A stretch of DNA of 64,000 bases from the NCBI RefSeq assembly GCF_021390395.1, contig NZ_JAJUWT010000001.1, forward strand, positions 1 to 64,000. Direction: 5' to 3'. The notes beneath the pieces are model-generated. The model had not been told where the DNA came from. It was given only the letters and a program-made list of their open reading frames with translations, and ran no database searches. The translations under genes were made by a program, and so were the position numbers. Positions 48,021-64,000 of this stretch are shown one piece after another; position 1 is the stretch's first letter; every line of letters begins with the position of its first letter. The stretch comes from Saccharothrix sp. S26. Lineage in GTDB: Bacteria > Actinomycetota > Actinomycetes > Mycobacteriales > Pseudonocardiaceae.

Positions 48021-48093
48021 GGGGCTGTGGCGCAGCTGGTAGCGCATCACACTGGCAGTGTGAGGGTCAGGGGTTCGAGTCCCCTCAGCTCCA
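48021..48093 (+). tRNA. tRNA-Ala (GGC)
   Basis: The 73-base cloverleaf has anticodon GGC in CACACTGGCAGTGTG. The acceptor GGGGCTG pairs with CAGCTCC, giving the G3:U70 wobble that identifies alanine tRNAs. CCA is not encoded. It marks the border between core genes and the accessory stretch and could be an integration site, though no second copy of its 3' end is seen in the window. Confidence 0.93.
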
Positions 48094-48610
48094 CAATCAC
48101 ATATGGTATACGAATCGCCCGCTGACCTGCGTAAACAGGTTCGGTGGGCGATCTCCGTTTTCGGTCCACTGTGGACAGTGGTGTGCCGAGCCGGAGGAAA
48201 TCAGGAGAACTGGTCCTGATCGCCGTGAAACAGGGTCAAGGATTCTCTCCAGGATTGGTCGCCCGGCCGGGTGGTTGTTAGTCAGGACCTTTGGGATCGC
48301 CGCTGACGTGCGTGGACAGCCGTCTGGTCGTACGGGCGGGTGGTGCCGGGATGTCCGGTCAGCGGCGGCCTGGGCGGGCGTTTCTCGCCGACCACGACGT
48401 CGGCACCTGCGTGACGAAGCGCAGCCGCCGCAAACACGCAATCTCGATCCGTGGATGCGGATGGCGCCGAGCGGCAGACGGTCGCCCCTCCGTACTCAAC
48501 GGCCGGCGGCGAAACTGTTCTGCCAGCCTCGTGCGCGTCCGCGCGGAAGTGGTGTGGGAGTTGATCGGGCACTTCGGAACCGGTCGACCGAGTCGCCGTA
48601 CTCGCGGTCA
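48094..48610. other. Intergenic region at the island border
   Basis: No gene is supported. A two-part hairpin at 48114-48152 (ATCGCCC with GGGCGAT, inner ACCTG with CAGGT), followed by CCGTTTT, is the likely tRNA-Ala terminator. A perfect small palindrome CCACTGTGGACAGTGG lies at 48166-48181. The remaining 400 bases show nothing clear; base composition shifts toward more A/T here. Confidence 0.5.
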
Positions 48611-49972
48611 TCAGGTGCTTGCAGGCGGCTGGGGTGCCCAGGGCACGGGGTCGGCGTCCCCTGCCCAGCCGCCTGGGCCGAGGATCGTCTGGTACGACCC
48701 GCTGTAGCCGAGCCAGTGCAGGACCAGCAGGTTGAGGTAGTGGCGGCTGAGGAGCCAGGTGTCCCGGACGAGGCCGTTGAGGTGATAGACCTCGTCCTGG
48801 GGTGCGTTGGGGTGGACCAGCCGGTTGCGGACCTTGGTGATGGCGGCGGGCCCGTCCAGTGATGTGCCGGTGCTCGACTCCGTCGTGGCGAACTGCGTGA
48901 GAGCGGGCTGGCGTGCCGCGTCGATGCTCGTGTCGACGGAAGCCGCTTCCAGCAGCATCCGAATGCGTCCGCTGGTGCCGGGTTGTTTGTACTGGGTGTT
49001 GCTGAGTCCGTTGGTCAGTTTGAGGATGACCCAGCTCAGTAGTTCCAGGGCGGAGAAGATCGTCATGGTGCGCTGTTCGACCCGGCCGGCGTGGTTCGCC
49101 TCTGTGGCCATCGACAGCAGGAACCGGGTGGTGTGGCTGCGGTCCGGATCGGCGAATGCGGCATACACGCAGGACACGAGATCGTGGAGGTGGTGCGTGT
49201 TGGGGTAGTGCAGCCAGGCGAGGCTGCCGTTGCGACCCGGGTGGCAGAAGACGTTGGCCCACTGTCGCCACACGATAGAGCCGGTCGAGTCGATCCCGAC
49301 GGGAGCCGCGGGCGCCACCCAGCGCCCGAAGGCGAAAGACGTCCCGAAGTGCAGGGCTTGCTGAAGCGGTTTGAGATCCGTGGCGGTGAACTCCTCGCCG
49401 TCGGACCTGCTGATCTCCATGACGTGGGTCATGACGAAGTTGTGCTCGCTACCCGGGACGTCCCAGACGCGTTTGTGATCTTGACGTCGATCGAGCGTGA
49501 GTTTCCACGGACCTACTTGGCACCGCCACCTGCCTGTCCACCATGACCAGCTCTCACCTTCCCTGTGGTAGAGCTTGGTCGGGCTGTGGATCGAGGGGAG
49601 GTTGATCCAGTGGAGCATGACCCGGTGCAGTGGGGTCTCGTCACTGCCGATCGACTGCCCGTGGACGAGTCCGCCCGCGGAGTTCCGTAGTAGGCCCGCC
49701 ACCTCGTACACGCCGTATGGCTGGTGTACGCGGAGTCGGATGTCGGACTTGTCCATAGTTTCCAGCGCCCAGCGCACTGGTGGTGCCTCATCGAGGTGCC
49801 AGACGACGTCGAGCTGAGACCCGCACCTCAGCAGGACCCGGCCTCGAAGTTCTTGACCGTGTGCTTCGAGCAAGGGTCCCTCGTAAAGCTGGATGTCCTC
49901 GCCCGGCTCGTTGAACGGGTGGGCGGGAACCAGTGGCTCCTCGCCGAGACTTTCAGGTGCCGCAGTCGCCAT
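48611..49972 (-). CDS. Hypothetical protein with HEPN-like C-terminal motif
   Basis: The protein is 453 aa. The N-terminal two thirds are mixed beta/alpha with no family I recognise (WHLDEAPPVRWALETMDKSD, QALHFGTSFAFGRWVAPAAP). The C-terminal third is helical, IFSALELLSWVILKLTNG then ITKVRNRLVHPNAP, where R382-x4-H387 is the Rx4-6H signature of HEPN RNases in a typical KxRNRxxHP context. Many HEPN proteins are defence effectors. The ATG at 49972 is chosen over a TTG at 49984. It lies downstream of the SMC/kinase operon on the same strand. Confidence 0.6.
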   Translation of the reverse strand: MATAAPESLGEEPLVPAHPFNEPGEDIQLYEGPLLEAHGQELRGRVLLRCGSQLDVVWHLDEAPPVRWALETMDKSDIRLRVHQPYGVYEVAGLLRNSAGGLVHGQSIGSDETPLHRVMLHWINLPSIHSPTKLYHREGESWSWWTGRWRCQVGPWKLTLDRRQDHKRVWDVPGSEHNFVMTHVMEISRSDGEEFTATDLKPLQQALHFGTSFAFGRWVAPAAPVGIDSTGSIVWRQWANVFCHPGRNGSLAWLHYPNTHHLHDLVSCVYAAFADPDRSHTTRFLLSMATEANHAGRVEQRTMTIFSALELLSWVILKLTNGLSNTQYKQPGTSGRIRMLLEAASVDTSIDAARQPALTQFATTESSTGTSLDGPAAITKVRNRLVHPNAPQDEVYHLNGLVRDTWLLSRHYLNLLVLHWLGYSGSYQTILGPGGWAGDADPVPWAPQPPAST

Positions 49973-50253
49973 TGCCCCATCCAACCAGGACGATCAGCGG
50001 ACGCCGGAGAACGCGGGCAAAGAGTTCCACAGGCTCACCTCCACGCCGGACGTCGGTGAGGACGGCCAGTCACAGATCATCGATCTATTGGACAGCGTGG
50101 AGTGACGCGCAGTGCGGAACCGCTGCCGATGGAAGTCAGCTACTCGCGGATTCGCTTCTGACGCAGGATGCCAGTTTGCTGGTGGCCTCCGCCGCGGGCA
50201 TCAGGACCGTAGGGCTCCCGTTCCTTGGTTCTGCAGAGGCGAACGTGATGCGA

Positions 50254-51267
50254 TTACCGGAGCAGGCCCAGAGACCTCAATATGCGTCCGGTATCCGCTC
50301 CGTCGATGATCATGTAGGAGCGGCGGTGCCGCGCGTCGTGGGCGTAGGCGTCCATCATGCCAACCACGCTCGGCTTGATCTGATGACAGTGCTGCAGAAC
50401 GAGTAGCTCCGCAGGCTCGGTGAACAGCCGGTCGATCTGGTCGCCATTCTTGCCCAGGGCCTTGACGTCCATGGCGCGAGGGTAGCCTGGTCCCTTGAAC
50501 AGCCACGCGGCCGACACCTGGCGCCCGCGAGCGAATACTCGTGACGTGTAGAGGTCGGAGCGCTCGCCACCCCAATCCTTCGGAACGTACGACTCGCCGA
50601 TCAGCCCGGCAAAGGCGCGTTTCACCGTGTCCTCCGGCACTCGCAGGACCGCTTCACCCTCGGCCTCGGTGAGGGGAGATGCGAAGTCGATTCCGCTGAA
50701 CTGGCCGATATCGCTGGGGTAAACCCGCGCTCCCGACGCGGGGCCTCCGGTGCCAAGGTCGTCATCGACGAACGACCTGATTCCGATGAAGGCTGGCCTG
50801 AGCTCGATTCGCTCTGCGCTGAGATTGGTGACCGTCCCGATCAGGTAGGCCCGCCTGTTCCCGGTGAGGTTGCCGGGTGCGGAGGAACTGGCGATTCTTG
50901 CCGCGTTGAATGTTCCGGTGACGCGCACCGGCTCGCCCGCGTCGAGCACCGCCGTGAAGCTGGTCGGTTTGAAGCCGGGGGCGTCGCGGTCACGGTCTCG
51001 CTGGAACGTGAACTCCAACTCAGTGCCGACGACTTGCCCCGCACGTAGGGCCTGCTCCAGGACGCGCCTCGTCAGTTCGCCGACTCCCAACGAGGAGAGC
51101 GCCTCGGCAAGTTCTGCGGCGAGCACGTAGGGCATCGCTGCCTCGGGATCGCTCCTGCGGGCCGCCCGCGCCCGTGCGGACTCCGTCCGCTGCTCTCCGA
51201 GGAGGGACTGAACCTGGTCTTGGTGCAGGTAGTACGGCTCGAGCGCAATGCGTGTCATCGGCAACAT
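50254..51267 (-). CDS. Hypothetical protein with nuclease-like C-terminal region
   Basis: The protein is 337 aa. The N-terminal part is a helical head and a beta-rich middle (LTGNRRAYLIGTVTNLSAER). The last 110 residues contain RSDLYTSRVFARGRQVSAAW, LFKGPGYPRAMDVKALGKNG, DQIDRLFTEPAELLVLQHCH and YMIIDGADTGRILRSLG. The layout (acidic residues, then beta strand with Lys) suggests a restriction-endonuclease-like fold, but this is only an impression. The ATG at 51267 follows AAAGGA; an ATG at 51258 is possible. It starts 66 bases after the kinase gene, likely the same transcript. Confidence 0.6.
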   Translation of the reverse strand: MLPMTRIALEPYYLHQDQVQSLLGEQRTESARARAARRSDPEAAMPYVLAAELAEALSSLGVGELTRRVLEQALRAGQVVGTELEFTFQRDRDRDAPGFKPTSFTAVLDAGEPVRVTGTFNAARIASSSAPGNLTGNRRAYLIGTVTNLSAERIELRPAFIGIRSFVDDDLGTGGPASGARVYPSDIGQFSGIDFASPLTEAEGEAVLRVPEDTVKRAFAGLIGESYVPKDWGGERSDLYTSRVFARGRQVSAAWLFKGPGYPRAMDVKALGKNGDQIDRLFTEPAELLVLQHCHQIKPSVVGMMDAYAHDARHRRSYMIIDGADTGRILRSLGLLR

Positions 51268-51333
51268 GATCCTTTCAGCTGAGGTGAAGCACAATTTTCT
51301 GTGCCCGGCAGCGCTGGGACCGTGAAGGAACGG

Positions 51334-52704
51334 TCACGGGATGTCCTTGAGCAGGTGGAGGAGTTCGTCCACGCCCTGCGGCCGGTCGGTTGGCTTGTGG
51401 TGGGTTGCCTTCGTCACTACAGCTCGCCATGGTCCGCTGGCGGGCAGCAGCGGAAGATTCTGCTCCGGTCGTTCCCCGGTCAGGATTGCTGCGATGAGCC
51501 GCCCAATGCTGTAGATGTCGGCGGCGACCGTCACGTTGTGGGGGTTTCCGGACGACAGCTCCGGCGCGGCGAATCCTTCAGAGCCGAAGCCCGTACCGGT
51601 CCGAGTCCGGCGCGGAACGCTGGTTTCCCCTCGGGGCTGTCGGCCTAGCCCCCAGTCCGCTACGACCCACTTGCCGTTGAGGAGCAGGACGTTGGCTGGC
51701 TTGATGTCGCGGTGAATCCGGTCGTCGTTGTGTGGGCGGCGCAGTCCATTGCAGACTGCCGTGACGAGGTCCCGGAGGGCTCCTGTTTCCCGCCGAAGGC
51801 GTTCCACGTGGCTGGCGGCACTGCCATTCGCAAGCGGCATCACGAACCACCGCCCGTCTGGGTCCGAGTCCAGGACCGGCATGACGTTCGGGTGCTCTCC
51901 GTAGAGGTGCCCGATGGAGATCTCGCGGCGCATGCGGTGTACAGCGTCTTCATCACCGTAGCGGAGCTGCTTCAGCGCAACGGGGATGCGGGTGTATTTG
52001 TGCATGCCGCTGTAGACCGCGCCCTGACCACCTTCAGCGAGCGGTTCTTGGTCCCTGTCGTAGTCCGACTTCGTTCCGCGCTCGAGCCAGCGCACAGCAG
52101 CCCACGGCGCGGCCCCGCCTGTGTCGGTCATGGTGTCGTCGCTGAGAAAGGCGCGGGCGGCCTCGATGACGTGGTCACGGTAGGGTCCGTCCCGTTGTGT
52201 TCTGAGAATGGCTACCAGTGAGCCAGCGGCCGGATAGTGAGCAAGCTCGGCAGCGAGACAGCGTGCCTCGGCGTCCTGCGCGGCCCGGCGGGCGGCGCGC
52301 TGGCTGTTCTGCTCTTGTCGGGCCGCGTGCAGGTCAGGGTGAGGTGTCCAGCCGCGGGGTGGCAGGACTACGCGAGCGCTGCGGAAGTCGCATTCGAGGG
52401 CGATGCAACCGTTGCGCGCAAGCGCCACGGCTATGTCTTCGGCGCGGTCGCCGAACGTGGTCACCGCAGATTGCCACCGTCGGGGGCCGTTGGTGACGAA
52501 GGCCCACTGACTGTCGGTCAGGCCGCCTGGGCGGTGCGGTAGCGGGAAGCCTTCCGGTTCCAGAGTGACGCGCGTGATCTTCGGATTGCCGTTGCGGTCG
52601 GTGTTGTAGCTGCCGTCGGGTAAGGGGACGGCGTACGTGGTGAGGCCGGGGTAGACGTCGAGGTGGCGCATCGCGAAACCTCGCGGGAGGCGGCGGGCGG
52701 TCAT
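51334..52704 (-). CDS. Soluble Hanks-type Ser/Thr kinase with DWG motif
   Basis: The protein is 456 aa with no membrane segment. The unknown N-terminal part (1-215) contains a charged helix (SQRAARRAAQDAEARCLAAE). The kinase domain shows Gly-rich loop LAEGGQGAVYSG (222-233), VALK with Lys245, RIHRDIKPANVLL (catalytic Asp333, Asn338), VVADWGLGRQP with DWG at 350-352 where DFG is usual, and GFAAPELSSG (APE). All catalytic residues are present, so activity is likely. Its ATG overlaps the SMC stop (ATGA), tying it to the SMC complex; its substrates may be the SMC or accessory proteins. Confidence 0.88.
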   Translation of the reverse strand: MTARRLPRGFAMRHLDVYPGLTTYAVPLPDGSYNTDRNGNPKITRVTLEPEGFPLPHRPGGLTDSQWAFVTNGPRRWQSAVTTFGDRAEDIAVALARNGCIALECDFRSARVVLPPRGWTPHPDLHAARQEQNSQRAARRAAQDAEARCLAAELAHYPAAGSLVAILRTQRDGPYRDHVIEAARAFLSDDTMTDTGGAAPWAAVRWLERGTKSDYDRDQEPLAEGGQGAVYSGMHKYTRIPVALKQLRYGDEDAVHRMRREISIGHLYGEHPNVMPVLDSDPDGRWFVMPLANGSAASHVERLRRETGALRDLVTAVCNGLRRPHNDDRIHRDIKPANVLLLNGKWVVADWGLGRQPRGETSVPRRTRTGTGFGSEGFAAPELSSGNPHNVTVAADIYSIGRLIAAILTGERPEQNLPLLPASGPWRAVVTKATHHKPTDRPQGVDELLHLLKDIP

Positions 52705-55700
52705 GCTGGCTCGCGGTACTCGTTGCCGGCCAGCCAGGCTCGGAGCAGTTCAACACGCGGGGTGTGCTCGTCGTGGCCGACGACGACGGGCTGCTCGTTG
52801 TACGGGCTGGAGTCTGAGCTGCGGCGCAGCTTGACGTACTGGCCGCAGGCGTCGATAGCGTAGGTCTCCATGTCGTCTTGCAGTGCCCCGACGACTGTGA
52901 TGCCACTGTCCTTGCCGATCTGCCCGAGCAGAGCGACCGCCTCGCGACGGTGTTGCTTGCCGAGGTTGCGGCCTAGCTCGTCCAAGACGAGCACCAACGG
53001 GCGGCCGGTGCCGCTCGCAGCTGCGGCGGCACAGACGAGCTTGATCGCCCGGTCATCGATTTGTGCCGTGTTGGCCCGCCGGTCGTAGGGGATGTGGCGC
53101 CGCCCCTCGGCGCGTCGCCACATCGGCGTCACTTTCCAGCCCCACGCCTCGGTGGGGTGGGCTGGCGGCGGAGGCTCCTCGTATTGGAGCGAGGCCCCGT
53201 ACCCGCCGTGGGCTCTATCGAGCCGGTCAAACTCGGCCGCGACGTCGGCCAGCTTCTTCTTGATGGCGGAGGTGAGCGCCCCTCGGTAGGCGCGGCCAGC
53301 CTGGACCGCCTCCTCGTGGCCGATCCGCGCAGCGTCGAGGCTCTTATGCCGTTCCTCGCGCTGAGTGGCGATCTGCTGGCGTTCGTATCGGTCGGTATCT
53401 TCCTGTTGGCGCAGGTAGACGTGAAGCGCATGACGTAGCGGGGCAAAAGCGGCCTGTGCTCGTCGGCTGCTGCCGGGCCCACGTTGGCTGGACTCTTCCA
53501 TCAGGCCGTTGATTTCCGTCGGCATACTGCCCGATGCGGTGGGAGGGAAGCACTCGGATATCGCGGTGTTGATCAGGCCCCTGGCCCCCTCCCACCAGTC
53601 GTCGGCCGTCCAGGACTGCTGGTCGTCCGGCAGGGCGAGCAGATACTCGCCGGCAGAGTCGGGGGTGCCGTCCCAGTCGGCAATCAGTTCCGGAAGGCCG
53701 AGCTGCGATTGTTCTTCCTCGAGCTTCCCACGCTCCTTACGCCGGGTCTCGTTCGTGCCGTCGAGGGTGGTCTTCTGACGCCGTAGCGACTCGATCTGCT
53801 GCTGGCGGATGCCTGCCAGGCGGAGCACCTCGTCCCGATCGGCTTGCGCGGCAGTGAGCGCCGGGGCGAGTTCTCCGCGTGCTTCTCTGGCGGCCTCGTC
53901 CTTTTTTCGCAACCTGCCAGCCTGCACTTCCAGCTGGTCTGCCTCCGCTGCCGCCCGTGCGCCCTTTTGTCGACGCTCAGCGCCGGTTACCTTTTGCCTG
54001 GCGGTATTCTGTGCCTTGACAGCGTCCCGGTGCACCGTGGACTTCTGGCGGACCTGCTCGCGGGCAGCCGCGATGCGGGCGGCGCGGCCGGTTGTGGGCT
54101 GGCTGAACCCGCCGACTACCACGATCCCGGCGTCGTCGTGGACCCGGTCGGGGTCGCTGTGGGCCGTGGTCCGGGCGTGAAGGGCTGCGAGGAAACCACT
54201 CACGTCGTACTCGGGATCGACGCTGCCCGGGAGCCTGCCGTGGGGGGCTGGCGAGGCCAGGTTGGCAGCGATCAGGATCGAGCCGGGTATGCCCGCTAGG
54301 AGTTGGCTGGCTCGGTTGAGCTGGGCTGAGTCCACGACCGCCGCCTCGCGGTAGGGCCAGAGGGCAGCTTCCCAGCGGGCTCGGTCCGGCTCGTCAAGGA
54401 CGACAGCGTCCAGCAAGCCGATAGCGCCGATTTTCTCGGTCGCGAGGAGCTCGATCTGTTGCTGGGCCAGATCCCGGCCGCTTTCTGTGTCTCGCAGGCT
54501 TGATTCGGCGTCGGAGAGCGCCTTCTCTGCCACTCCGACCGCCTTGACCGCGTCTTCCAGGGCCGCGTCCGCTTCGGCGCGCTCCCGGTCAGCGGCCTGC
54601 TCGTCGCGTCCGTCAGCGTCGCGGGCTGCTTCCCTGGCCCCGCGCAGCTGGCGGTCAACGTCCTCGATCTGCTGTTCCAGCGTCGCGATCTGGTTGCCCA
54701 GCTCACGGTCGTCGCTGTCGAGCTTGATGAACGTGCTCATCGCGGCCTGCTGCCGTTGCGTGAACGCCTCGTCGTCGGCTAGCTCCGCCGCCTGCGTGCC
54801 TAGCTCTTGTGCCGTGCTGCTGTCCCGGTCGATCTCGGTCTCGATCCCGGCGATCTCGTGCTGGATATCGGCGTCGCGCTGGAGGGCATCGCATAGCAGC
54901 CGTGCCGTGCGCGACCGCCATAGGTCCGCCGCTTCCACGACGAGCCCGCGTGCTCGGTCCCGGGCGTCGATGCCACCCTCGATGATCTGGGAGTTTTCCT
55001 CCCAGTTGGCAAGGTCGGACTCGGCGTCGCCGGCCTCCTGCAGGCGGTCATACTCGTGGCGGCGTGCCTGACGTTCCTTCTCTAGCTCGATGTCTAGGCC
55101 GGTGAGCGCAGCGATCGCCTCGAAGATCCGCCGCTCTGAGATTTCGTTCAACGGTTGGGCGAGCAGGTTCGGGGCGGCGCTGGCCCGCACCGACGTCGAC
55201 AGGAACGACACGCACCGCACGTGCTCGCCGTAGAGGGTGCGCGGAAGGTCGCGGGCCGCCACGTCCTGCCGCCCGGCCCGCTGGGGCAGGGCTTGCCAGA
55301 CAAAGTCAGCGGCCTGCTCCCGCTCAGCCTCGCTGTCCCCAGCGGGTAGATGCAGCCCGTCCTGCCAGCGCAGCTTCAGCCGGGGACCTTTCTGGCTGCT
55401 GCGGTCAATCCGTATCCACACGGTCAGGGCGCAGGCCTGAAGCTGATCGAGGGTCCCGGCGGCAGGAGCGAACACGCCGATGAGGTACCCATGGTCGGCG
55501 TTGCCCCAGCGGTCTTCACCGCCAGCGTCCTCGGAGTTGAACAGTAGGTCGACCGCGGCGGGCGCGCCGGAGCCGAATCGCCACTGCTCATCGGCATGCA
55601 GCAAGCTGATCTGGGCTAGCAGCGACGACTTCCCCGCCCCATTGGAGTCCTTCGGCCCCTGCCCGGCCACGGCTATGAGAGTGCCGGCGGCAACCGGGAT

Positions 55701-55793
55701 GGGATGCGTGGACAGCCGGGAGATTCTCACGCTCTGCAGGCCGACCAGGACGCGGTCACCGACGATGTCCTCTCCTTGCGGCGTGCCGCTCAT
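52701..55793 (-). CDS. SMC-like coiled-coil ATPase (MksB/JetC-like)
   Basis: The protein is 1030 aa. Walker A is AVAGQGPKDSNGAGKSSLLA (about 41-60), and Walker B PLVLVLDELGRNLGKQHRR is about 932-950. Long coiled coils lie between (VDRQLRGAREAARDADGRDE, ERRQKGARAAAEADQLEVQA) around a globular, hinge-like middle (GSILIAANLASPAPHGRLPG, AGIVVVGGFSQPTTGRAARI). The canonical LSGGQ signature is not visible; TAQIDDRAIKLVCAA sits in its place. It should form the ATPase of a condensin-like complex with the three proteins upstream. The ATG at 55793 overlaps the preceding stop; the longer open frame is a shadow. Confidence 0.85.
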   Translation of the reverse strand: MSGTPQGEDIVGDRVLVGLQSVRISRLSTHPIPVAAGTLIAVAGQGPKDSNGAGKSSLLAQISLLHADEQWRFGSGAPAAVDLLFNSEDAGGEDRWGNADHGYLIGVFAPAAGTLDQLQACALTVWIRIDRSSQKGPRLKLRWQDGLHLPAGDSEAEREQAADFVWQALPQRAGRQDVAARDLPRTLYGEHVRCVSFLSTSVRASAAPNLLAQPLNEISERRIFEAIAALTGLDIELEKERQARRHEYDRLQEAGDAESDLANWEENSQIIEGGIDARDRARGLVVEAADLWRSRTARLLCDALQRDADIQHEIAGIETEIDRDSSTAQELGTQAAELADDEAFTQRQQAAMSTFIKLDSDDRELGNQIATLEQQIEDVDRQLRGAREAARDADGRDEQAADRERAEADAALEDAVKAVGVAEKALSDAESSLRDTESGRDLAQQQIELLATEKIGAIGLLDAVVLDEPDRARWEAALWPYREAAVVDSAQLNRASQLLAGIPGSILIAANLASPAPHGRLPGSVDPEYDVSGFLAALHARTTAHSDPDRVHDDAGIVVVGGFSQPTTGRAARIAAAREQVRQKSTVHRDAVKAQNTARQKVTGAERRQKGARAAAEADQLEVQAGRLRKKDEAAREARGELAPALTAAQADRDEVLRLAGIRQQQIESLRRQKTTLDGTNETRRKERGKLEEEQSQLGLPELIADWDGTPDSAGEYLLALPDDQQSWTADDWWEGARGLINTAISECFPPTASGSMPTEINGLMEESSQRGPGSSRRAQAAFAPLRHALHVYLRQQEDTDRYERQQIATQREERHKSLDAARIGHEEAVQAGRAYRGALTSAIKKKLADVAAEFDRLDRAHGGYGASLQYEEPPPPAHPTEAWGWKVTPMWRRAEGRRHIPYDRRANTAQIDDRAIKLVCAAAAASGTGRPLVLVLDELGRNLGKQHRREAVALLGQIGKDSGITVVGALQDDMETYAIDACGQYVKLRRSSDSSPYNEQPVVVGHDEHTPRVELLRAWLAGNEYREPA

Positions 55794-56467
55794 GAGCTGC
55801 TCCTTGGGGAGGTCGTCACTTCTGGGCGGCCCAAACTCCGGCGTACCGTGATCGCCGTAGCGAGCGCTGTATCCGGGCCTACGGCCAGGATCAGGTTCTC
55901 CTGCAGGCGCCGCCGCGCGGCTGGAGTGAGCCGGCGCAGCGCCGGCCCGGGGACGTACGAGGCGCCGGCCATCTCTGAATCGGCGCCGCGTACCGAGCGG
56001 ACCAGCCCGGCCGCACGCAGCCACTGCAGAGCATCGGACAGGCGTCGCTGCCCGCGAACTTGCGACAGCTTCCGCAGATGGGTCGGTGTGGTCGGATGGG
56101 TCGACTGCCAATCGTCGCCGGCCAGGTGACCCTCTGCCCGGGGGATCGCAACGGAGTGGATTAGCACCAATACCAGTGCGGCCCGCTCCAGCGGCGGCAG
56201 AATTCCCCAGCCGTTTGCCGCGAGTACCGCAGCGATGTCGTCCCGGTATCCCGATGTCCACAGGTAGGCGCCCGCGTCGACGAGCGTACGGCCGGTCATT
56301 CGCAGCATCTGGTCAAGCAGATGACGCAGCGCCGCATCGCGGAGTGCGGGCAGTGCGGCCTCGCTGGCGGGCTCGCTGCCGTACTCAAGCGCGGCCCACG
56401 CCGAGACCAGCGCGTCGCGCTGCTTATCACCGAGCGGCTGGAGCAGGTCATCGAACAAGCCGCTCAC
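55790..56467 (-). CDS. Small SMC-complex subunit, KITE/MksE-like (candidate)
   Basis: The protein is 225 aa and all helical with winged-helix-like segments: THLRKLSQVRGQRRLSDALQ, WLRAAGLVRSVRGADSEMAG and ALRRLTPAARRRLQENLILA. Position between the kleisin-like gene and the SMC gene, size and wHTH character fit MksE/JetB, but sequence match to a named family is not seen. GTG at 56467 overlaps the preceding stop, and its stop overlaps the SMC start. Confidence 0.6.
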   Translation of the reverse strand: MSGLFDDLLQPLGDKQRDALVSAWAALEYGSEPASEAALPALRDAALRHLLDQMLRMTGRTLVDAGAYLWTSGYRDDIAAVLAANGWGILPPLERAALVLVLIHSVAIPRAEGHLAGDDWQSTHPTTPTHLRKLSQVRGQRRLSDALQWLRAAGLVRSVRGADSEMAGASYVPGPALRRLTPAARRRLQENLILAVGPDTALATAITVRRSLGRPEVTTSPRSSS

Positions 56468-57006
56468 CGGTCCGGCTCCCGGTCAGGTCGCGGGAGTGGC
56501 AACTCCCGGCACAGCTCCCGCAGCACCGGGAGGTCCTGGTCCGGCCATGTGGCCACCCTGGGACCAAGGCAGACCCGCTGCGCGTCGTCATCGATATCCA
56601 GCCATCGGCTGGCGTTCAAGCGGCGGAGCGCCCCCACCCCGAAGCGGTGCAGCACCTCTTCCCCCCGTCCGGGCGTGAGCTGGTCCACCACGTCTAGCAC
56701 CTCGCGCATCGTCGCTGGCCGCCCCGGCCACGGGCTTCCCTGGATATCGGTCCAGCAGCAACGGAGCGCCGCGGCCAGGACCCGGCTGGTCTCGTTCGGA
56801 AATTCCACCGGGAGCACCTGCATCCGCAGCTCACGCAGCATGGCCGGTGTCACGTCGTCGGGCGGGCGGGGCAGCAGCCAACAGTGCTCACCGCCCCGTC
56901 CCACCAGCCGCAACATGCCTGCCGGGGTTCTGGCCGCTGACGGCACACGCAGCGGCCCCACGGCCCGGGATCTCGCCCACCACAGCGCTGCCTCCGGACT
57001 GCTCAC
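56464..57006 (-). CDS. Second small subunit of the SMC operon (unknown family)
   Basis: The protein is 180 aa and mixed alpha/beta: LRVPSAARTPAGMLRLVGRG, LRELRMQVLPVEFPNETSRV, VVDQLTPGRGEEVLHRFGVG, ALRRLNASRWLDIDDDAQRV. The last two resemble a winged helix. It has no counterpart in the three-subunit MksBEF set, so it may be a second KITE-like subunit or a new adaptor. GTG overlaps the kleisin-like stop (GTGA). Confidence 0.6.
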   Translation of the reverse strand: MSSPEAALWWARSRAVGPLRVPSAARTPAGMLRLVGRGGEHCWLLPRPPDDVTPAMLRELRMQVLPVEFPNETSRVLAAALRCCWTDIQGSPWPGRPATMREVLDVVDQLTPGRGEEVLHRFGVGALRRLNASRWLDIDDDAQRVCLGPRVATWPDQDLPVLRELCRELPLPRPDREPDR

Positions 57007-58214
57007 GCGGGCCTCCGTACTCGCTCGAACACACCAGGGGTAAGCCACGATGGCACGCTCCCTGGCCGTACCTGGACCGGGCCGGACCACGTCAGCCGGT
57101 AGCCGAGTCGGTCATTGTTGCTCGCGGCGACCAGGTCGGCCAATACGCGGCGTGCCGTCACCCAGTCCGTGTCCGACAGCAGTTGCTCGACCGCAACAGA
57201 GTCTCCGCCGCTAAGGACCTCTTCGGCGATTCCCGTCAGTCGCTCAGCCTCCGCGTCGGACCACTCTTGCGAGGGCCGCTCATCACCATCGGGAACCCGG
57301 GAACGCGGCGGTGTCGAGCGGCCGCTGGTCGGCTGCGACCTCCCCACAGCGGCCTCCGCCAGGTCGGCGACGTCGTGCCATGGGGAAGGTGCGTCAAAGA
57401 CCTGATCGGCCAGAACTGCCGCGAGCTCGCCCACAGTCGCTCGCCGCGCGAAGCGCTTCCACATCTCGGGCGGCAGCAGGTTCAGCGCCCGTGAAGTTCC
57501 CGCTGCGGCTATCAAGCGCGCCGACGCGTTCGTCGAGGCATCTCCGTAGGCGGCGATCGCCGAGCGCAGTTCCCCGCACAAGCGGCTGAGCTCCGGCCAG
57601 AACTTCAGCAGGATCTCATGGACCGCAGACGCCTGGTCGATCAGCGACTTCGCGTTCCACAGCAGTGGGGCGCGCTCCCGCAGCGCTTCCACGGTGCCGC
57701 CGATGGTCAGCGCCACGAGCTCGGCGACCAGGAGCCGCAGCGCCGTGGTTACCCCGACGACAACCTCAAGGGCTTCCTCGGCGGTACCCTGCCCGCCCTC
57801 CAGCCTGGTCTTCTCCATCGTTAGGAGTTGGTGTAACTCTGACTGACCCCCGCGGGCCAGCATCCGCTGGACGAACAGCATTGACACATAGCTAGTGAAC
57901 GAGGCCCGGTACTCACGCTGGTAGGGCCTATCAAACGCAGGCTGTATCGCGCCGAGCTTCCGCAGGACGCCCAGGCGGTTCTCGATTACGTCGTCCGGGA
58001 AGGCGGCGCATGCCGCCTTGATCTGTTCAACTGTCAGACCGTCCTCACCCGCGCGGGCAAAGGCGGCAAACAGCGTATCCGCCAGTTGGAATAGGGTCGC
58101 ATCATCGATCGCTGCATCTGCCTTGCGTGCCAGGACAGCGACAATCTGCTCAAATACAGAAACGACGGCCTGCTCGGCTGCTACTGCATCCAGTCCAAAC
58201 TGCTCGTCCACCAC
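57003..58214 (-). CDS. Kleisin/MksF-like protein, first gene of the SMC operon
   Basis: The protein is 403 aa. The N-terminal winged-helix (DGLTVEQIKAACAAFPDDVI, ENRLGVLRKLGAIQPAFDRP), then a long helical bundle (YVSMLFVQRMLARGGQSELH, EALEVVVGVTTALRLLVAEL, RERAPLLWNAKSLIDQASAV) and a C-terminal winged-helix-like end (GYRLTWSGPVQVRPGSVPSW) follow the MksF/MukF plan of a kleisin. GTG at 58214 is preceded by TATAGT at minus-strand distance 6, suggesting a leaderless mRNA for the operon. Confidence 0.7.
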   Translation of the reverse strand: MVDEQFGLDAVAAEQAVVSVFEQIVAVLARKADAAIDDATLFQLADTLFAAFARAGEDGLTVEQIKAACAAFPDDVIENRLGVLRKLGAIQPAFDRPYQREYRASFTSYVSMLFVQRMLARGGQSELHQLLTMEKTRLEGGQGTAEEALEVVVGVTTALRLLVAELVALTIGGTVEALRERAPLLWNAKSLIDQASAVHEILLKFWPELSRLCGELRSAIAAYGDASTNASARLIAAAGTSRALNLLPPEMWKRFARRATVGELAAVLADQVFDAPSPWHDVADLAEAAVGRSQPTSGRSTPPRSRVPDGDERPSQEWSDAEAERLTGIAEEVLSGGDSVAVEQLLSDTDWVTARRVLADLVAASNNDRLGYRLTWSGPVQVRPGSVPSWLTPGVFERVRRPA

Positions 58215-58230
58215 AGCCTCACTATACAGA
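58215..58230 (-). promoter_or_regulatory. Probable promoter -10 of the SMC operon (leaderless)
   Basis: On the minus strand TATAGT (plus 58221-58226) lies six bases before the first GTG of the kleisin-like gene, so the transcript would begin at or next to the start codon. No clear -35 is seen. Confidence 0.45.
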
Positions 58231-58342
58231 GTCTAATTCGTATTGATTGGTTGAACTGGCCTCGTGCAGGCGCTTGATCATTGCGGTATGCCGGGTGGAT
58301 GAGGTGCTCGCAAGGTGATTGGTTGACGCCCCGCGAACAGCC

Positions 58343-58504
58343 AACGCGGGAGCGGACCGGTTGCAGGCCGGTGCGCGCATCGCCGAAGGCGAGAAGACCG
58401 AGGTGATCGCCGCTGAGCTGCGGGTGGGTGTGCGTCAGGTGGAGAAGTGGCGCCGGACGTGCTTCGCGGCCTCGGCCGACAGTTGCGTGAGCAGGGGTGA
58501 GGCC
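58343..58504 (+). pseudogene. Transposase HTH fragment (IS630-type, decayed)
   Basis: The plus-strand frame reads RLQAGARIAEGEKTEVIAAE followed by LRVGVRQVEKWRRTCFAAS, the pattern of the N-terminal HTH of IS630-type transposases. The frame then loses similarity, and no DDE catalytic region follows. It is a remnant of an insertion in the spacer beside the SMC operon. Confidence 0.45.
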
Positions 58505-58695
58505 TTCGGAGTGGTTGACGAAACCCCTGGACGTCGGCGGGCGGTTGGCGCGACACCGGCGTGGAGTCAGTCCAGTGCGGTGGAAGTGCACGTCCCCGCT
58601 CACGTCACGGCCGAGCACCACGTCGTCTGCGGATCCGCTCAGCTCGTTGCGGGACTCATCGTCACCGCGTGCGGCGTGCTCGTTCACGACGTGGG

Positions 58696-58824
58696 TCAGC
58701 CGGTCGACGGCAGTCGCCGGGCCACCTCTCGGTGGAAGAACGCGCCGAGTTCCTCGTCCCGGTCGTACAGGTCGGCGACGAGCGCCTTCAAGCGCTCGAC
58801 CTCGTTGGGGACGACGCACTTCAC
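58696..58824 (-). CDS. Possible 42-aa ORF
   Basis: A minus-strand frame from GTG at 58824 reads VVPNEVERLKALVADLYDRD and ELGAFFHREVARRLPSTG with good third-position G+C. A short upstream frame from an ATG (near 58901) ends at the GTGA just before it, so it may be the tail of a frameshifted small gene. No family is known, and support is weak. Confidence 0.25.
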   Translation of the reverse strand: MKCVVPNEVERLKALVADLYDRDEELGAFFHREVARRLPSTG

Positions 58825-59122
58825 CGCTCCGTGCAGCAGGGATTTCCCAACCGTTTCTTGAACTGGGTCACTAGATCAGCTTCCCTGGTGCGACTCATGA
58901 AATTCCCTTGCAATTGGCGTAGTCTCGAAAAGGGTACGTGGTGCCGCTGGGGCCGGGCAACTCTGATCACCTCACCGTAGAGCGTAGCGATCGCTATTCG
59001 CGCTCAGTCCGCAAAAATGCGGCTACTCCAGCAATGGCCTGTATTCCGCTACCGTGGGTTCTCGACCGCAGAGTGCCGCGCATCACGGTAGATCGACTCG
59101 TCGCGCTGGAGGTACTGTCGTT

Positions 59123-60127
59123 TCAGCGTCGAAAGCCGCGATTCGGATCGCGTTCTTCCAGTGAGTAGAACCGTTCGAACAGGTACTCCAGCTCTCCGGG
59201 TGTAGCAGGCGCGTGCTTGGAGGACAGGTAGCCGATGTGGTCGGTGTCCTCGAACAGTAGGTCGTAGAGGACGTCGAAGTCGTAGTCGTACGGTGTGTCC
59301 GGCAGGCCGTGATCGAGTTCGTTCAGCATGTCGGTGTCGGTGTGCATGGCTTCGGCGTCGTGGATGATCAGGTCCAAGGCGATCTGCTCGGCCATGTCGT
59401 GGGGGCGTGGTTCGATTCCGTCGTGCAGGTCGTCGACCAGGTCGTCGAACGCTCGGGCCATGCGGCGGACGAACTCGGCCGGTTGCTCGCGCATGATCGC
59501 GGGCATGAGTTGGAGTTCGTCGGCGGACGCGTTGCGGTCGCTGATGTGTTCGGCATGGTCGAAGTACTCGTCTGCGAGTACCGAACCCGCGGTGGCCAGG
59601 AGGTGGGCGGTACGTGGAGTCAGGTCGGGCGGGATGCAGTCCTCACACCCTGTCTCTTCGCAGAATGCGCAGTTCTGGCAGTCGTTGGCGCAGTCCTGGC
59701 AACTGGCGCATTTGCCCGGTGTGCAGGCGGTGGTGGGGAACAGGAGGATGCCGTCGATGGGATCGCCGTAGACCCGGTGTGCCAGGGGCGGCCGGCCCCA
59801 TTGGGCGACCTCGACCGGGTCGATCGGTAGTTGCCGGATGGCGGCGACGACGCTGTCGGGCATGCCTTCCAACGCGGCGTCGAGTCGTTCGGTGTGGTTG
59901 CGTCGGCCGAGCAGGCGTGAGTTGAGTGCGTCGGCCAGGCGTCGTGCGGTGATGGCGTCGGAGACGGTGGCCAGAGCGTGGAGTTGGGTGTGGCCGGGGC
60001 TGCGGGTGATGGCCATGACGCGGTGCTTGCTGGCAGTGTGGTGTGGCAGGAACGCCTCGTAGTGCGGGTCGTCGAGCGGCACGGTGTTCTCCGGATTGCG
60101 CAGGTCGATCAGGCCTGTCGTCGGCAC
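59123..60127 (-). CDS. Orphan protein with nine-cysteine cluster
   Basis: The protein is 334 aa. Nine Cys lie within 30 residues (135, 140, 143, 146, 150, 153, 156, 161, 164) in CTPGKCASCQDCANDCQNC and FCEETGCEDC, mostly CxxC steps as in multi-zinc or ferredoxin-like sites. The N-terminal part (KHRVMAITRSPGHTQLHALA) and the acidic C-terminal half (ELDHGLPDTPYDYDFDVLYD) match no family I know. The GTG at 60127 lies in the centre of a 34-base palindrome, so the true start may be later (e.g. the Met at residue 38). It follows the integrase gene. Confidence 0.55.
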   Translation of the reverse strand: MPTTGLIDLRNPENTVPLDDPHYEAFLPHHTASKHRVMAITRSPGHTQLHALATVSDAITARRLADALNSRLLGRRNHTERLDAALEGMPDSVVAAIRQLPIDPVEVAQWGRPPLAHRVYGDPIDGILLFPTTACTPGKCASCQDCANDCQNCAFCEETGCEDCIPPDLTPRTAHLLATAGSVLADEYFDHAEHISDRNASADELQLMPAIMREQPAEFVRRMARAFDDLVDDLHDGIEPRPHDMAEQIALDLIIHDAEAMHTDTDMLNELDHGLPDTPYDYDFDVLYDLLFEDTDHIGYLSSKHAPATPGELEYLFERFYSLEERDPNRGFRR

Positions 60128-60144
60128 GTGCCGACGACAGGCCT
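60111..60144. repeat. Perfect 34-bp palindrome between integrase and Cys-cluster gene
   Basis: AGGCCTGTCGTCGGCAC is followed directly by its reverse complement GTGCCGACGACAGGCCT. It lies 117 bases after the integrase stop and covers the annotated start codon of the next gene. It could be the integrase terminator, an operator or a recombination/replication element. Confidence 0.75.
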
Positions 60145-60260
60145 GTCAACGAAGGTCAGGGTCCGCGCTGGTGGTCCGGGTGCTTCCGCAGACCCCGTGG
60201 CGCAAGGGCGACGCTAGCAGAGTCGTCCCTGCATCGCACCGGAGAAGGAGAACGCGGTGC

Positions 60261-61469
60261 TCAGGCGGCGGTGCGCCAGCTGCCGTCGGTCTCTTGGTCG
60301 CCGAGTTCGGCGATCGCGTCGGTCCATCGCTTTTGCAGCGCGGTCATCAGCCGTTGTTCGACTTCGACCGCGACGTGGGAGTAGGTCTCCTGGATCTTGT
60401 CGGGGAGCTTGTGGCCGAGTCGGCGGGATTGCGCGACTTCGGGCATGGCGTCGGCGATCATCCAGGTTTTGTGGCTGTGTCGTAGGCCGTGGAAGGTCAG
60501 CCCCGGCTTGATGGGGCGGGTGCGCACGCGGGGTTGCCGGACGGTGTGGTTCCCGTCGGCGGCGGGTCGCATGGCGCGGCGGGCGAAGTTGCTGCGGCGG
60601 TGCAGGTCGCCGCCGGGGGTGACGAACACATGAGGGTGGTCGTAGGTGTCCAGGTGTTGCCGCAGCAGCGGTAGCAGGAACTCCGGCAGTGTGACGGTGC
60701 GTGCCGACTCGGGGGTTTTCGGTGGGCCGAGCCACAGCTTGCCTGAGCTCGACTCGTGCAGTGTGCCGATGTCGGGGTCGACGACGAAGCAGCCGTCGTC
60801 GAGATGCAGGTTGCGGCGTTGCAGGCCGATCAGCTCGCCCCAGCGGGCGCCGCTCCATGCGGCGGTGAGGATCAGCAGGCCGCCTCCGGCGTCGTAGTTG
60901 GCGGCGACTTGGTCTGCGATCAGGATGACTTCCTTGGGCATCGCCCAGACCTTCTCCGGTTGGCGGCGGGTGCGGCGTCCACGACCACGCCGGTGCGGTC
61001 GGATGGGGTTCGCCGCGAGCAGCTTGCGCCCGGTCGAGTCGGTTTCGTCGGCCGCGTCGGCGAGCATGAGCGAGAGGACTTTGATCGTGTCGGAGACCGT
61101 GACGTCGGCGAGTCCGCCCTGCCGCAGGGTTTTCGCCCAGGCGTGGACCTTGAAGTTGGAGATTTCGGCCAAGGCGAAGCCGCCCCAGCGGGGCAGGATG
61201 TGGCGGCGTAGTTTGCTGCGGTAGTTCTCCTCTGTGCGGAGGTCGACGTCCAGGCTTTCCAGCCACGTCTCGGCCCAATCGGCCAGCGCGATGGGGGTGT
61301 CGGCCTCGGGTTCGGTGATGATTCCCTTGCGCTGTGCGGATTCCATGTCCTCGGCGTGGTTATCTGCCGAGGACTTCGTGGTGAAGCCGGTGACGGAGCC
61401 GATGCTGCCGTCATCTTTGAAGTAGCGGACTCGCCAAAACCGTTTTCCGCTTCTCTCTACCCAAGCCAT
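60261..61469 (-). CDS. int: Tyrosine recombinase/integrase
   Basis: This 402-aa enzyme catalyses site-specific integration. An N-terminal arm-binding-like part (RFWRVRYFKDDGSIGSVTGF) is followed by a core-binding domain (WAETWLESLDVDLRTEENYR) and a catalytic domain with Arg in AAWSGARWGELIGLQRR, HGLRHSHKTW (H-x-x-R-H) and LGHKLPDKIQETYSHVAVE containing the nucleophilic Tyr. The ATG at 61469 is chosen; the open frame upstream runs across the spacer. Xis and methyltransferase genes lie upstream on the same strand. Confidence 0.93.
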   Translation of the reverse strand: MAWVERSGKRFWRVRYFKDDGSIGSVTGFTTKSSADNHAEDMESAQRKGIITEPEADTPIALADWAETWLESLDVDLRTEENYRSKLRRHILPRWGGFALAEISNFKVHAWAKTLRQGGLADVTVSDTIKVLSLMLADAADETDSTGRKLLAANPIRPHRRGRGRRTRRQPEKVWAMPKEVILIADQVAANYDAGGGLLILTAAWSGARWGELIGLQRRNLHLDDGCFVVDPDIGTLHESSSGKLWLGPPKTPESARTVTLPEFLLPLLRQHLDTYDHPHVFVTPGGDLHRRSNFARRAMRPAADGNHTVRQPRVRTRPIKPGLTFHGLRHSHKTWMIADAMPEVAQSRRLGHKLPDKIQETYSHVAVEVEQRLMTALQKRWTDAIAELGDQETDGSWRTAA

Positions 61470-61617
61470 GATTGCCCTCCGATGGTGTGGGGTCACGAAT
61501 GCGACAGCAGCATGGACGCTCCATAGCGGGGAAAGGGCAAGGGTTCTCGGGTAGAAACTTATGTAGTGTTTGTAGGGCTCGATCCGTCGCTGTGGCCGCT
61601 GTCCAGGAGGGCCTTTC

Positions 61618-61932
61618 TCATCGCCTGTAGGTGCGCTTGCTTTGTGGTCGTGCGGGTCGCGTGCCTGCCTCGACGATCGCGCGAAGATCGGCATCGGAGA
61701 AGCGGAGATGCTTGCCGAGAAAAGTGCAGGGAACTCGTCGGAGGCCGGCTTGCCGGCGGAGCCAGGACTCCTTGACCGTCAGGATGACGGCAGCCTCGGC
61801 CGGGGTGTGCAGCTGCGGGGACCGTAGGGTCATGTCCCGACACAGCTCCGCTGATCCGTCTCGGGTGCCTGAACGAAGGACTTCTTCCTCGTCGTTCGAA
61901 TGATCGGGCGCTACCGGGTTTCTCGTGGTCAT
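61618..61932 (-). CDS. xis: Excisionase-like HTH protein
   Basis: The 104-aa protein has an acidic N-terminus followed by an excisionase/MerR-type HTH: LHTPAEAAVILTVKESWLRR, then VPCTFLGKHLRFSDADLRAI. It should direct the integrase toward excision. The ATG at 61932 overlaps the stop of the methyltransferase gene (ATGA), so Xis is made only when the methyltransferase gene is read. A 148-base gap separates it from int. Confidence 0.85.
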   Translation of the reverse strand: MTTRNPVAPDHSNDEEEVLRSGTRDGSAELCRDMTLRSPQLHTPAEAAVILTVKESWLRRQAGLRRVPCTFLGKHLRFSDADLRAIVEAGTRPARPQSKRTYRR

Positions 61933-63398: not shown

Positions 63399-64000
63399 GC
63401 CGCCCAGCTCTCCGGCACGCCCGAGTGCTCCTTCGGGTTCCCGGTGTGTCGCGCTCGGTCGGTGAGGAAGCGTCGCGAATCGCGGCGGTCCGTCGAGATT
63501 CCTGAACCCGCCGACCGGCGCAACGCCGTGCGGAAAACCAGTACGTCCTCATGTGCGATGAGGTGCAGCGGCAGTCTGGCTTCGCGCTGTTTGCGGATGA
63601 AGTCGCGTTGGAAGAAGCTGCCGCGCGCGATGAGGTCGGTCTCGGCCGCGCGCGCCAGCAGTGCGACGCAGCGCTCGACGGGGATCAGGCCGGCGTGCAG
63701 GCCGCAGGCCAGGATCTGGGAGGGCAGGTCGATGAGTTCGGCGTGCTCGCGCCAGGGTCGGATCGTGATGGCGATGTGCCCGCCTGGCCGCAGGTAGGTA
63801 TTGAGTCCGGCGAGGATGCGGGTGAACCCGGCGAGCAGCCGGTGGTGGCCGATGTTGGCGAGGTTCCCGCGGTCGAGGGTGTTGCCGTAGAGGTGGTGGT
63901 ACTTCTGCACCCCGACGCCCGGCACCGCGGACACCTGGCCGTGGGTCGACGGACCGTAGGGCGGAGAGGTGACGACCAGCGCCGCCTGGCCGACGTACTC
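63395..64000 (-). CDS. DNA methyltransferase, SPPY type (5' part beyond window)
   Basis: The visible 201 codons run off the right edge. Reading in from 64000 gives ALVVTSPPYGPSTHG, the motif IV of N4-cytosine/N6-adenine amino-methyltransferases, then GGHIAITIRPWREHAELIDL, LLARAAETDLIARGSFFQRD and LHLIAHEDVLVF. The stop overlaps the C5-methyltransferase start (ATGA). This double-methyltransferase, xis, int order is found in actinomycete integrative elements. Confidence 0.8.
   Translation of the reverse strand, partial: EYVGQAALVVTSPPYGPSTHGQVSAVPGVGVQKYHHLYGNTLDRGNLANIGHHRLLAGFTRILAGLNTYLRPGGHIAITIRPWREHAELIDLPSQILACGLHAGLIPVERCVALLARAAETDLIARGSFFQRDFIRKQREARLPLHLIAHEDVLVFRTALRRSAGSGISTDRRDSRRFLTDRARHTGNPKEHSGVPESWAA

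What the first reader, a model, noticed from the sequence alone, without database searches (positions are those of the whole stretch)
51334..58214. Five-gene kleisin/SMC operon with a built-in Ser/Thr kinase: candidate undescribed condensin-type system
Seen: five minus-strand genes, each overlapping the next by 4 nt, encode a MksF-like helical protein, two small proteins, a 1030-aa SMC-like ATPase and a soluble Hanks kinase. Known: Wadjet (JetABCD) and MksBEF use kleisin, KITE and SMC subunits, and Wadjet adds the nuclease JetD. Here JetD is missing, an extra small subunit is present, and a kinase occupies the last place. Inference: a condensin-like complex that senses foreign DNA and is switched or reports through phosphorylation.
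Basis: partly seen in the sequence, partly recalled or inferred. Interest (0 to 1): 0.88.

Follow-up and report, generated by a model that had tools for sequence, protein, structure and literature searches.

The report
Wadjet-like system with kinase effector
An actinomycete carries what looks like a divergent relative of the plasmid-fighting Wadjet machine in which the usual DNA-cutting domain has been exchanged for a protein kinase plus a partner protein, suggesting that such DNA-sensing machines can swap their weapons.

Summary
The five-gene operon is real, and a sixth gene, F, follows the kinase. Among 99 related loci, 87 show all of A-B-C-D. The fifth slot varies: 17 loci carry a JetD-like TOPRIM protein, 8 the kinase, 74 neither was found. 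F is present in 8 of 8 kinase loci, 0 of 17 TOPRIM loci and 0 of 74 others. Kinase and TOPRIM proteins share their N-terminal domain (hhalign E 3.5e-24); TOPRIM proteins match PADLOC JetD models (best 2.8e-8). The SMC protein matches type III JetC by profile (E 2.2e-7). B and C are one polypeptide in some relatives; a low-confidence model of it resembles KITE proteins. The window and L081 share kinase and F at 90% and 87.5% but cores at only 43-50%, and the L081 N-terminal domain is closer to a TOPRIM relative's (62%) than to the window's (48%): an effector swap at a JetD-type docking domain. My reading: a divergent Wadjet-like complex that signals through a kinase to F. Defence, the docking role, phosphorylation of F, F as a nuclease, and A as kleisin are inferred, not shown.

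The parts
57003..58214 (-). gene A, 403 aa, position of JetA/MksF; kleisin identity unproven
   Evidence: conserved first gene of the unit
56464..57006 (-). gene B, about 180 aa (start at 57006 chosen for the GTGA overlap; open frame reaches 57090), candidate KITE-type subunit
   Evidence: fused to C in 12 aligned relatives; winged-helix-like pattern in the model
55790..56467 (-). gene C, 225 aa, candidate KITE-type subunit (two winged-helix-like units in the model of a relative)
52701..55793 (-). gene D, 1030 aa SMC-like ATPase; ABC signature position reads NTAQ instead of SGGE
51334..52704 (-). gene E, 456 aa: JetD-type N-terminal domain plus Ser/Thr kinase
52351..52704 (-). E residues 1-118: N-terminal domain shared with TOPRIM (JetD-like) proteins; proposed docking domain
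   Evidence: hhalign prob 99.6, E 3.5e-24 over 177 columns; identities
51460..52047 (-). E residues 220-415: Pkinase domain as matched by Pfam
   Evidence: motifs
50254..51267 (-). gene F, about 337 aa (346 from the TTG at 51294), partner of the kinase
50254..50712 (-). F C-terminal domain, candidate PD-(D/E)XK-like nuclease domain (E221, D247, K267, Q301 conserved)
   Evidence: fold search not significant

Best explanation
A divergent Wadjet-like SMC system in which the catalytic part of JetD has been exchanged for a kinase module. Shown by sequence: A-B-C-D is a conserved unit; the fifth protein joins one N-terminal domain either to a JetD-type TOPRIM or to a Ser/Thr kinase; gene F travels only with the kinase in the loci examined; kinase and F have been moved between diverged cores by recombination near the end of the N-terminal domain. 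Inferred: A is the kleisin, B and C form a KITE pair, D is the motor, and together they scan DNA as JetABC does; the N-terminal domain docks the effector on the core; when the core recognises foreign (for instance small circular) DNA the docked kinase is activated and phosphorylates F, which then executes, most likely as a nuclease. In TOPRIM relatives the docked subunit would cut DNA itself. Identity as a Wadjet-like system with a kinase in the JetD slot: about 0.85. Kinase-to-F relay as the mechanism: about 0.5.
For: Gene order and co-occurrence: A, B, C, D all found in 87 of 99 loci; F with 8 of 8 kinases, 0 of 17 TOPRIM, 0 of 74 others. Fifth proteins of TOPRIM loci match DUF2399 above its cut-off (L024, L025) and PADLOC JetD models (L024 2.8e-8, L052 6.6e-8, L172 4.6e-4). 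Shared N-terminal domain E 3.5e-24; SMC to type III JetC prob 93.5, E 2.2e-7, against 2.8, 0.016 for an SbcC control; JetD-like to type III JetD 84.9, 6.5e-6; yardstick JetC III-II 67.7, 4.9e-5 and JetD III-II 41.8, 2.7e-4. KITE-like fold of the B-C fusion: ScpB chains lead the Foldseek list. Swap: cores 43-50% but kinase 225 of 251 and F 294 of 336 identical between window and L081; L081 N-terminal domain 65 of 105 to L033 (TOPRIM) and 49 of 103 to the window. The kinase label needs at least 3 changes on the SMC tree, forced by well-supported branches; two deep lineages each hold kinase and TOPRIM loci. Kinase motifs intact.
Against: No experiment. A has no recognisable relative. The SMC match to type III JetC lies in the N-terminal head only, and in single-sequence scans PADLOC mad8, mad3 and LmuB models score as well as or better than JetC3. 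Neither D nor the JetD-like profile matches the single JetC and JetD of the other Wadjet-like locus in this genome. The signature motif is NTA, not SGG, so ATP hydrolysis may be impaired or different. KITE matches do not reach E 0.001 and the model has pLDDT 59. F as a nuclease rests on residues and topology; no significant fold match, and the E of ExK is not conserved. Kinase and F are rare and one of the 8 loci (L166) has broken C and D genes. 74 of 99 loci show no effector.
Confidence: 0.55

Rival explanations
1. The kinase is itself the weapon: activated by the core it phosphorylates host proteins and stops growth (abortive infection), and F is a regulator, protector or independent factor.
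For: Kinases are known defence effectors: PADLOC models for PD-T4-6, Stk2 and mad6 match the kinase domain (1.5e-29, 1.5e-23, 2.1e-28; kinase-domain similarity only). The kinase takes the place of the JetD catalytic domain.
Against: F occurs in 8 of 8 kinase loci in two gene arrangements and is as tightly shared as the kinase (87.5% against 90% between window and L081). F relatives occur without this kinase near SIR2-like and HerA-like ORFs, and in plasmids, which fits an effector better than an antidote.
Confidence: 0.2
2. The kinase tunes the SMC core (phosphorylation of A-D switches loading or ATPase), while F is a separate nuclease acting in the same pathway.
For: The kinase carries the domain proposed to dock on the core.
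Against: Kinase and F jump together between cores that are only 43-50% identical, so a substrate in the core would have to be conserved across them; D recurs without the kinase in 91 of 99 loci.
Confidence: 0.15
3. The unit is a chromosome-organising condensin of the MksBEF kind and not a defence system; the fifth genes are regulators.
For: 74 of 99 loci show neither TOPRIM nor kinase. In Kribbella the operon sits between the same neighbours in most loci (10 and 9 loci share the two upstream gene families), as a resident gene set would.
Against: JetD-like TOPRIM proteins in 17 loci; in the window the operon lies in a stretch of lower GC (0.671 against 0.708) with an integrase and a tRNA-Ala.
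Confidence: 0.08
4. Kinase and F are chance neighbours of an A-B-C-D operon.
For: The kinase-F pair lies on the other strand, upstream of A, in L026 and L167.
Against: 8 of 8 co-occurrence, 4-nt overlap of E with D in the window, the shared N-terminal domain and recurrence in two deep SMC lineages.
Confidence: 0.02

Closest known systems
Wadjet (JetABCD), nearest to type III by SMC and JetD profiles
   Same: Order of a JetA-sized gene, small KITE-like gene(s), SMC gene, effector gene; SMC N-terminal head matches type III JetC (E 2.2e-7) and the TOPRIM relatives' fifth protein matches JetD models.
   Different: Two small subunits (fused in some relatives); A unrecognisable; signature motif NTA; in this variant the TOPRIM is replaced by a kinase and gene F is added. 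The labels 'type III' (L116-L122) and 'type II' (L125, L127) are mine, from DUF2399 hits, gene order and sizes plus recall; I did not scan those loci gene by gene.
MksBEF / MksBEFG
   Same: Kleisin-KITE-SMC plan with or without a JetD-like nuclease (recalled, and abstract of PMC10123090 in a listing); here too most loci lack a visible effector.
   Different: No Mks, Muk or Jet model names A, B or C; a kinase as effector is not part of the recalled description.
Lamassu
   Same: SMC-like sensor with exchangeable effector domains joined to a conserved docking part (PMC10586767, passages); LmuB models match 4 of 10 SMC proteins weakly (best 3e-5).
   Different: Lamassu is LmuA-LmuB-LmuC without kleisin and KITE; here there are four core genes and a JetD-type docking domain. 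The kinds of effector listed in the passage do not include a kinase.
MADS (methylation-associated defence system)
   Same: Weak matches of D to mad8 (8 of 10 members, best 1.9e-5) and mad3 (3 of 10, best 1.7e-5), and of the kinase domain to mad6.
   Different: NCBIfam MAD6 scores 65 bits against a cut-off of 460; A, B, C and F match no MADS model. My knowledge of MADS is recalled; paper searches listed none.
Streptomyces plasmid kinases joined to nuclease domains
   Same: Nearest relatives of the kinase domain on plasmids (45-49% in the 10 of 14 records listed); 2 of these 10 are annotated as dsDNA-nuclease-domain proteins.
   Different: Long proteins (about 730-930 aa in the five contexts read) without the JetD-type N-terminal domain over the matched part; no A-D genes annotated nearby in those five.

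Membership tests
Wadjet | SMC ATPase subunit (JetC) | tested here: met
   Walker A and B, coiled-coil plan; N-terminal head matches type III JetC prob 93.5, E 2.2e-7, SbcC control 2.8. Hinge and C-terminal head: no signal. PADLOC JetC3 matches 4 of 10 relatives weakly, the window protein not.
Wadjet | kleisin JetA | tested here: inconclusive
   No match for A; the JetA sets do not match one another either.
Wadjet | KITE subunit JetB | tested here: inconclusive
   Foldseek list of the B-C fusion model led by ScpB, with Wadjet JetABC and MukE-MukF chains further down, E 2.2e-3 to 0.18, pLDDT 59. No profile signal to JetB sets.
Wadjet | JetD with TOPRIM nuclease domain | tested here: not met
   Window: kinase in its place. 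Met in 17 of 99 relatives. No DUF2399 match in the window's genome; one JetD_C match, at another locus.
Wadjet | restriction of circular plasmids | not testable with these tools
   needs experiment
Lamassu | LmuB with LmuA effector and LmuC, no kleisin or KITE | tested here: not met
   No LmuA or LmuC match for any of the 9 window proteins; different gene set; LmuB only weakly in 4 of 10 SMC relatives.
MADS | MAD6 kinase at the curated cut-off, with the other mad genes | tested here: not met
   65 bits against 460; A, B, C and F without a mad match, D weakly mad8 (2.7e-4).
BREX type 2 / Pgl | PglW-type kinase at the curated cut-off | tested here: not met
   25.1 bits against 990.
PD-(D/E)XK nuclease (gene F) | alpha-beta core with D and (E)xK on neighbouring strands | tested here: inconclusive
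   Model from 3 sequences, pLDDT 65, pTM 0.65, fitting order of elements with D247 and K267 on a hairpin; E of ExK absent; no significant fold match.

The most novel reading that the evidence does not exclude
A modular class of SMC immune complexes in which one docking domain presents interchangeable effectors, a TOPRIM nuclease or a kinase with a separate effector F, so that DNA sensing by a loop-extruding machine is turned into a phosphorylation signal.
Probability: 0.5. Interest if true: 0.88.

Novelty: new variant of a known kind. Interest (0 to 1): 0.78.

Why it matters
How JetABC switches on JetD 'remains to be elucidated' according to the review read in passages (PMC10586767), and the same review contrasts Wadjet with Lamassu, whose effectors vary. 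A natural exchange of JetD's catalytic domain for a kinase, with the N-terminal domain kept, separates recognition from execution and points to the docking interface. Phosphorylation of F would give a simple read-out of activation. It would also be, to my knowledge, the first kinase signalling from an SMC immune complex; my paper searches cover open-access PMC only.

Tried and rejected
Phage origin: the SMC profile and the kinase protein gave no relative in viral contigs; F gave one viral-contig relative, L134/L137. Plasmid carriage: the only D match in 'plasmids' is an 11.85-Mb Nonomuraea record, chromosome-sized. Other effectors on the docking domain: profile A11 in 394 genomes of the class gave the own genome and two marginal partial hits. 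MADS and BREX assignment: below cut-offs, though weak mad8/mad3 similarity of D stands. F families: no Pfam match at E up to 5 that means anything, no PHROG, no PDB sequence match. Fold of F: weak hits led by clamp loaders and Ras; RNA polymerase II chain E (recalled as RPB5) and MUS81-EME1, recalled as restriction-endonuclease-like, are among them at ranks 4, 17, 42 and 49, none significant. An att repeat: no exact copy of 12 nt or more of the tRNA-Ala region elsewhere in the window. A conserved fifth gene in effector-less loci: a co-directional ~1100-aa repeat-like protein in 8 Actinomadura loci and a transporter-like one in 5 others, nothing effector-like (by eye). Papers; lists were capped (20 of 96, 40 of 63); I saw listings, and passages of PMC10586767 only; none listed joins Wadjet with a kinase effector in title or abstract start. 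Rows dropped before counts: L029 (weak D hit) and five duplicates (L041, L055, L150, L162, L164); kinase hits under 40% identity were not counted as this kinase. L065 and L083 are two contigs of one genome and probably halves of one locus, so 99 may be 98. L166 (broken C and D) is counted but left out of the tree; the tree predates it.
Full report
Observation. The ORFs are as described and overlap by GTGA, GTGA, ATGA and ATGA. The window is the start of contig 1 of a 9.08-Mb genome with one match to the SMC gene. Pfam, PADLOC and NCBIfam recognise the kinase domain; A, B and C have no Jet, Muk or Mks match, and D only a weak PADLOC mad8 match (2.7e-4). Gene F follows the kinase after 66 or 39 nt.

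Relatives. P0004 matches in 13 of 249 genomes of the order, the own genome included. A profile search of one family gave 38 of 354 genomes, 6 of them only marginal partial hits of E 3.6e-4 to 8.4e-4; I fetched 28 regions from it. Genes were mapped by tblastn and counted over 99 distinct loci: A, B, C and D all found in 87; kinase in 8 (window, L026, L027, L081, L151, L166, L167, L169), each with F; TOPRIM in 17, with neither kinase nor F; neither in 74, none with F. Of the 74, at least 4 (L067, L083, L087, L091) end inside D, so the slot cannot be seen. L151 is a close copy of the whole window operon (90.7% over 8011 nt). L166 has a broken C and an interrupted D.

The fifth protein. In TOPRIM loci it matches DUF2399 above the cut-off and JetD_C below it (L024) and PADLOC JetD models at 2.8e-8 (L024), 6.6e-8 (L052) and 4.6e-4 (the distant L172). 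Its first ~200 residues and those of the kinase protein are one family: prob 99.6, E 3.5e-24 over 177 columns. Its TOPRIM part matches type III JetD at 87.4, 3.7e-6; the yardstick JetD III-II scores 41.8, 2.7e-4. It does not match the single JetD of the other Wadjet-like locus of this genome, which JetD type II does.

Effector swap. Between window and L081 (Dactylosporangium MAG) A-D are 43.0, 48.0, 49.5 and 47.3% identical, F 87.5% and the kinase part 225 of 251. Nucleotide identity along E is 0.44-0.62 up to codon 120 and 0.67-1.0 after it. In residues 16-118 L081 is nearer to the TOPRIM protein of L033 (65 of 105) than to the window (49 of 103); in the C part it has 225 of 251 with the window and 46 of 199 with L033. 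L033 and L081 are sister SMCs (SH-aLRT 98 and 97). On the tree of 42 SMCs the kinase label needs 3 changes and well-supported branches force 3 (quick tree with several long branches; three changes may be one gain and two losses). In a second deep lineage four kinase loci are sister to two TOPRIM loci. There the kinase-F pair is divergent and upstream in L026 and L167, downstream and collinear in L027 and L169.

The core. D matches type III JetC (7 sequences) at 93.5, 2.2e-7 over 243 columns; JetC III-II scores 67.7, 4.9e-5; an SbcC control 2.8, 0.016. By parts only the N-terminal head matches; hinge and C-terminal head do not, and III against II is also weak there (0.1 and 5.2). In single-sequence scans of 10 relatives mad8 matches 8, LmuB 4, JetC3 4 and mad3 3, all weakly, so the assignment to Wadjet rests on the whole gene set and on JetD rather than on D alone. 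The ABC signature position reads N-T-A-x in 69 of 75 D sequences and SGG[EQ] in none; the other 6 are partial or frameshifted (75 includes two duplicates). B and C are one polypeptide in the 12 loci aligned. The model of one such fusion (L045, pLDDT 59, pTM 0.31) has repeated helix-helix-strand-strand units. Foldseek ranks 1, 2 and 4-6 are named ScpB or ScpAB chains, rank 3 is 1t6s (unnamed; recalled as ScpB), then come MarR proteins, a MAGE-NSE1 chain (9), Wadjet JetABC chains (10, 11, 22) and a MukE-MukF chain (30); no E-value is under 0.001. A remains unidentified.

Gene F. Relatives outside the operon: two plasmid records (Rhodococcus, Gordonia), one short contig labelled phage with SIR2-like and HerA-like ORFs after it (by eye), one viral contig, and 2 genomes besides the own one of 396 in the phylum, one with PLD-like, PIN-like, ATPase and methyltransferase-like ORFs nearby and one where it ends a 624-aa ORF (by eye). 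Over 8 sequences E221, K225, DWGGE, D247, KGP, GDQ and QH are invariant (window numbering); the 624-aa ORF, not aligned, reads QF instead of QH. The domain model (3 sequences, pLDDT 65, pTM 0.65) puts D247 and K267 on a beta hairpin. This suggests a PD-(D/E)XK-like nuclease; the fold search does not prove it.

Kinase relatives. In plasmids 14 records match at E below 1e-30, 13 Streptomyces and one [Kitasatospora]; the 10 listed are 45-49% identical over the kinase only; two of the 10 are annotated as dsDNA-nuclease-domain proteins. I read five contexts.

Mechanism. Best reading: SMC sensor, JetD-type dock, kinase relay, F executor. Joint movement of kinase and F between diverged cores favours F over the core as the kinase's target. 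A growth-arresting kinase remains possible. The effector-less loci, some in fixed chromosomal places (Kribbella), leave room for a housekeeping role of the core there.

Novelty. Known kind: Wadjet-like SMC systems. New, as far as the libraries and papers searched show: a divergent type with two small winged-helix-like subunits, an altered signature motif, and exchange of the nuclease for a kinase plus F. The review read in passages names three Wadjet types with JetD as effector and contrasts them with Lamassu's variable effectors.

Noticed in passing
window 48021-64000: Island-like stretch: tRNA-Ala at 48021-48094, tyrosine integrase at 60261-61694 (Phage_integrase 3.8e-7), GC 0.671 against 0.708 for 1-48000. 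No repeat of the tRNA end found in the window; the far end was not looked for outside it.
   Followed up: partly
window 48611-49984 and 59123-60127: Two uncharacterised ORFs flanking the operon, without Pfam or NCBIfam matches; the first has only a chance-level PADLOC RdrA match (0.023).
   Followed up: no
window 63395-64000: ORF running off the window with a TSPPY-like methyltransferase motif by eye.
   Followed up: no
L177 8121-15570 (G000:C6): A second, more ordinary Wadjet-like locus in the same genome: ORFs of 500, 298, 1242 and 346 aa, the last with a JetD_C match of 7.4e-33.
   Followed up: partly
L030-L093, L149-L176: Instead of SGGE the SMC proteins read NTA at the signature position, a motif shared by the whole family (69 of 75).
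   Followed up: partly
L031, L032, L038, L051, L058, L062, L082, L089: In 8 Actinomadura loci a co-directional ~700-1130-aa repeat-like protein follows D within 50 nt.
   Followed up: no
L141-L145: Streptomyces plasmid proteins carry this kinase subfamily at the C-terminal side of long proteins, beside nuclease- or ADP-ribosyltransferase-annotated genes; one lies near a pglW gene.
   Followed up: partly
L081 17403-19679: A UvrD-like ORF near the kinase-type operon, by eye.
   Followed up: no
L134 7632-9766: On a viral contig an F relative is followed by an ORF with a possible PD-(D/E)XK motif, by eye.
   Followed up: no
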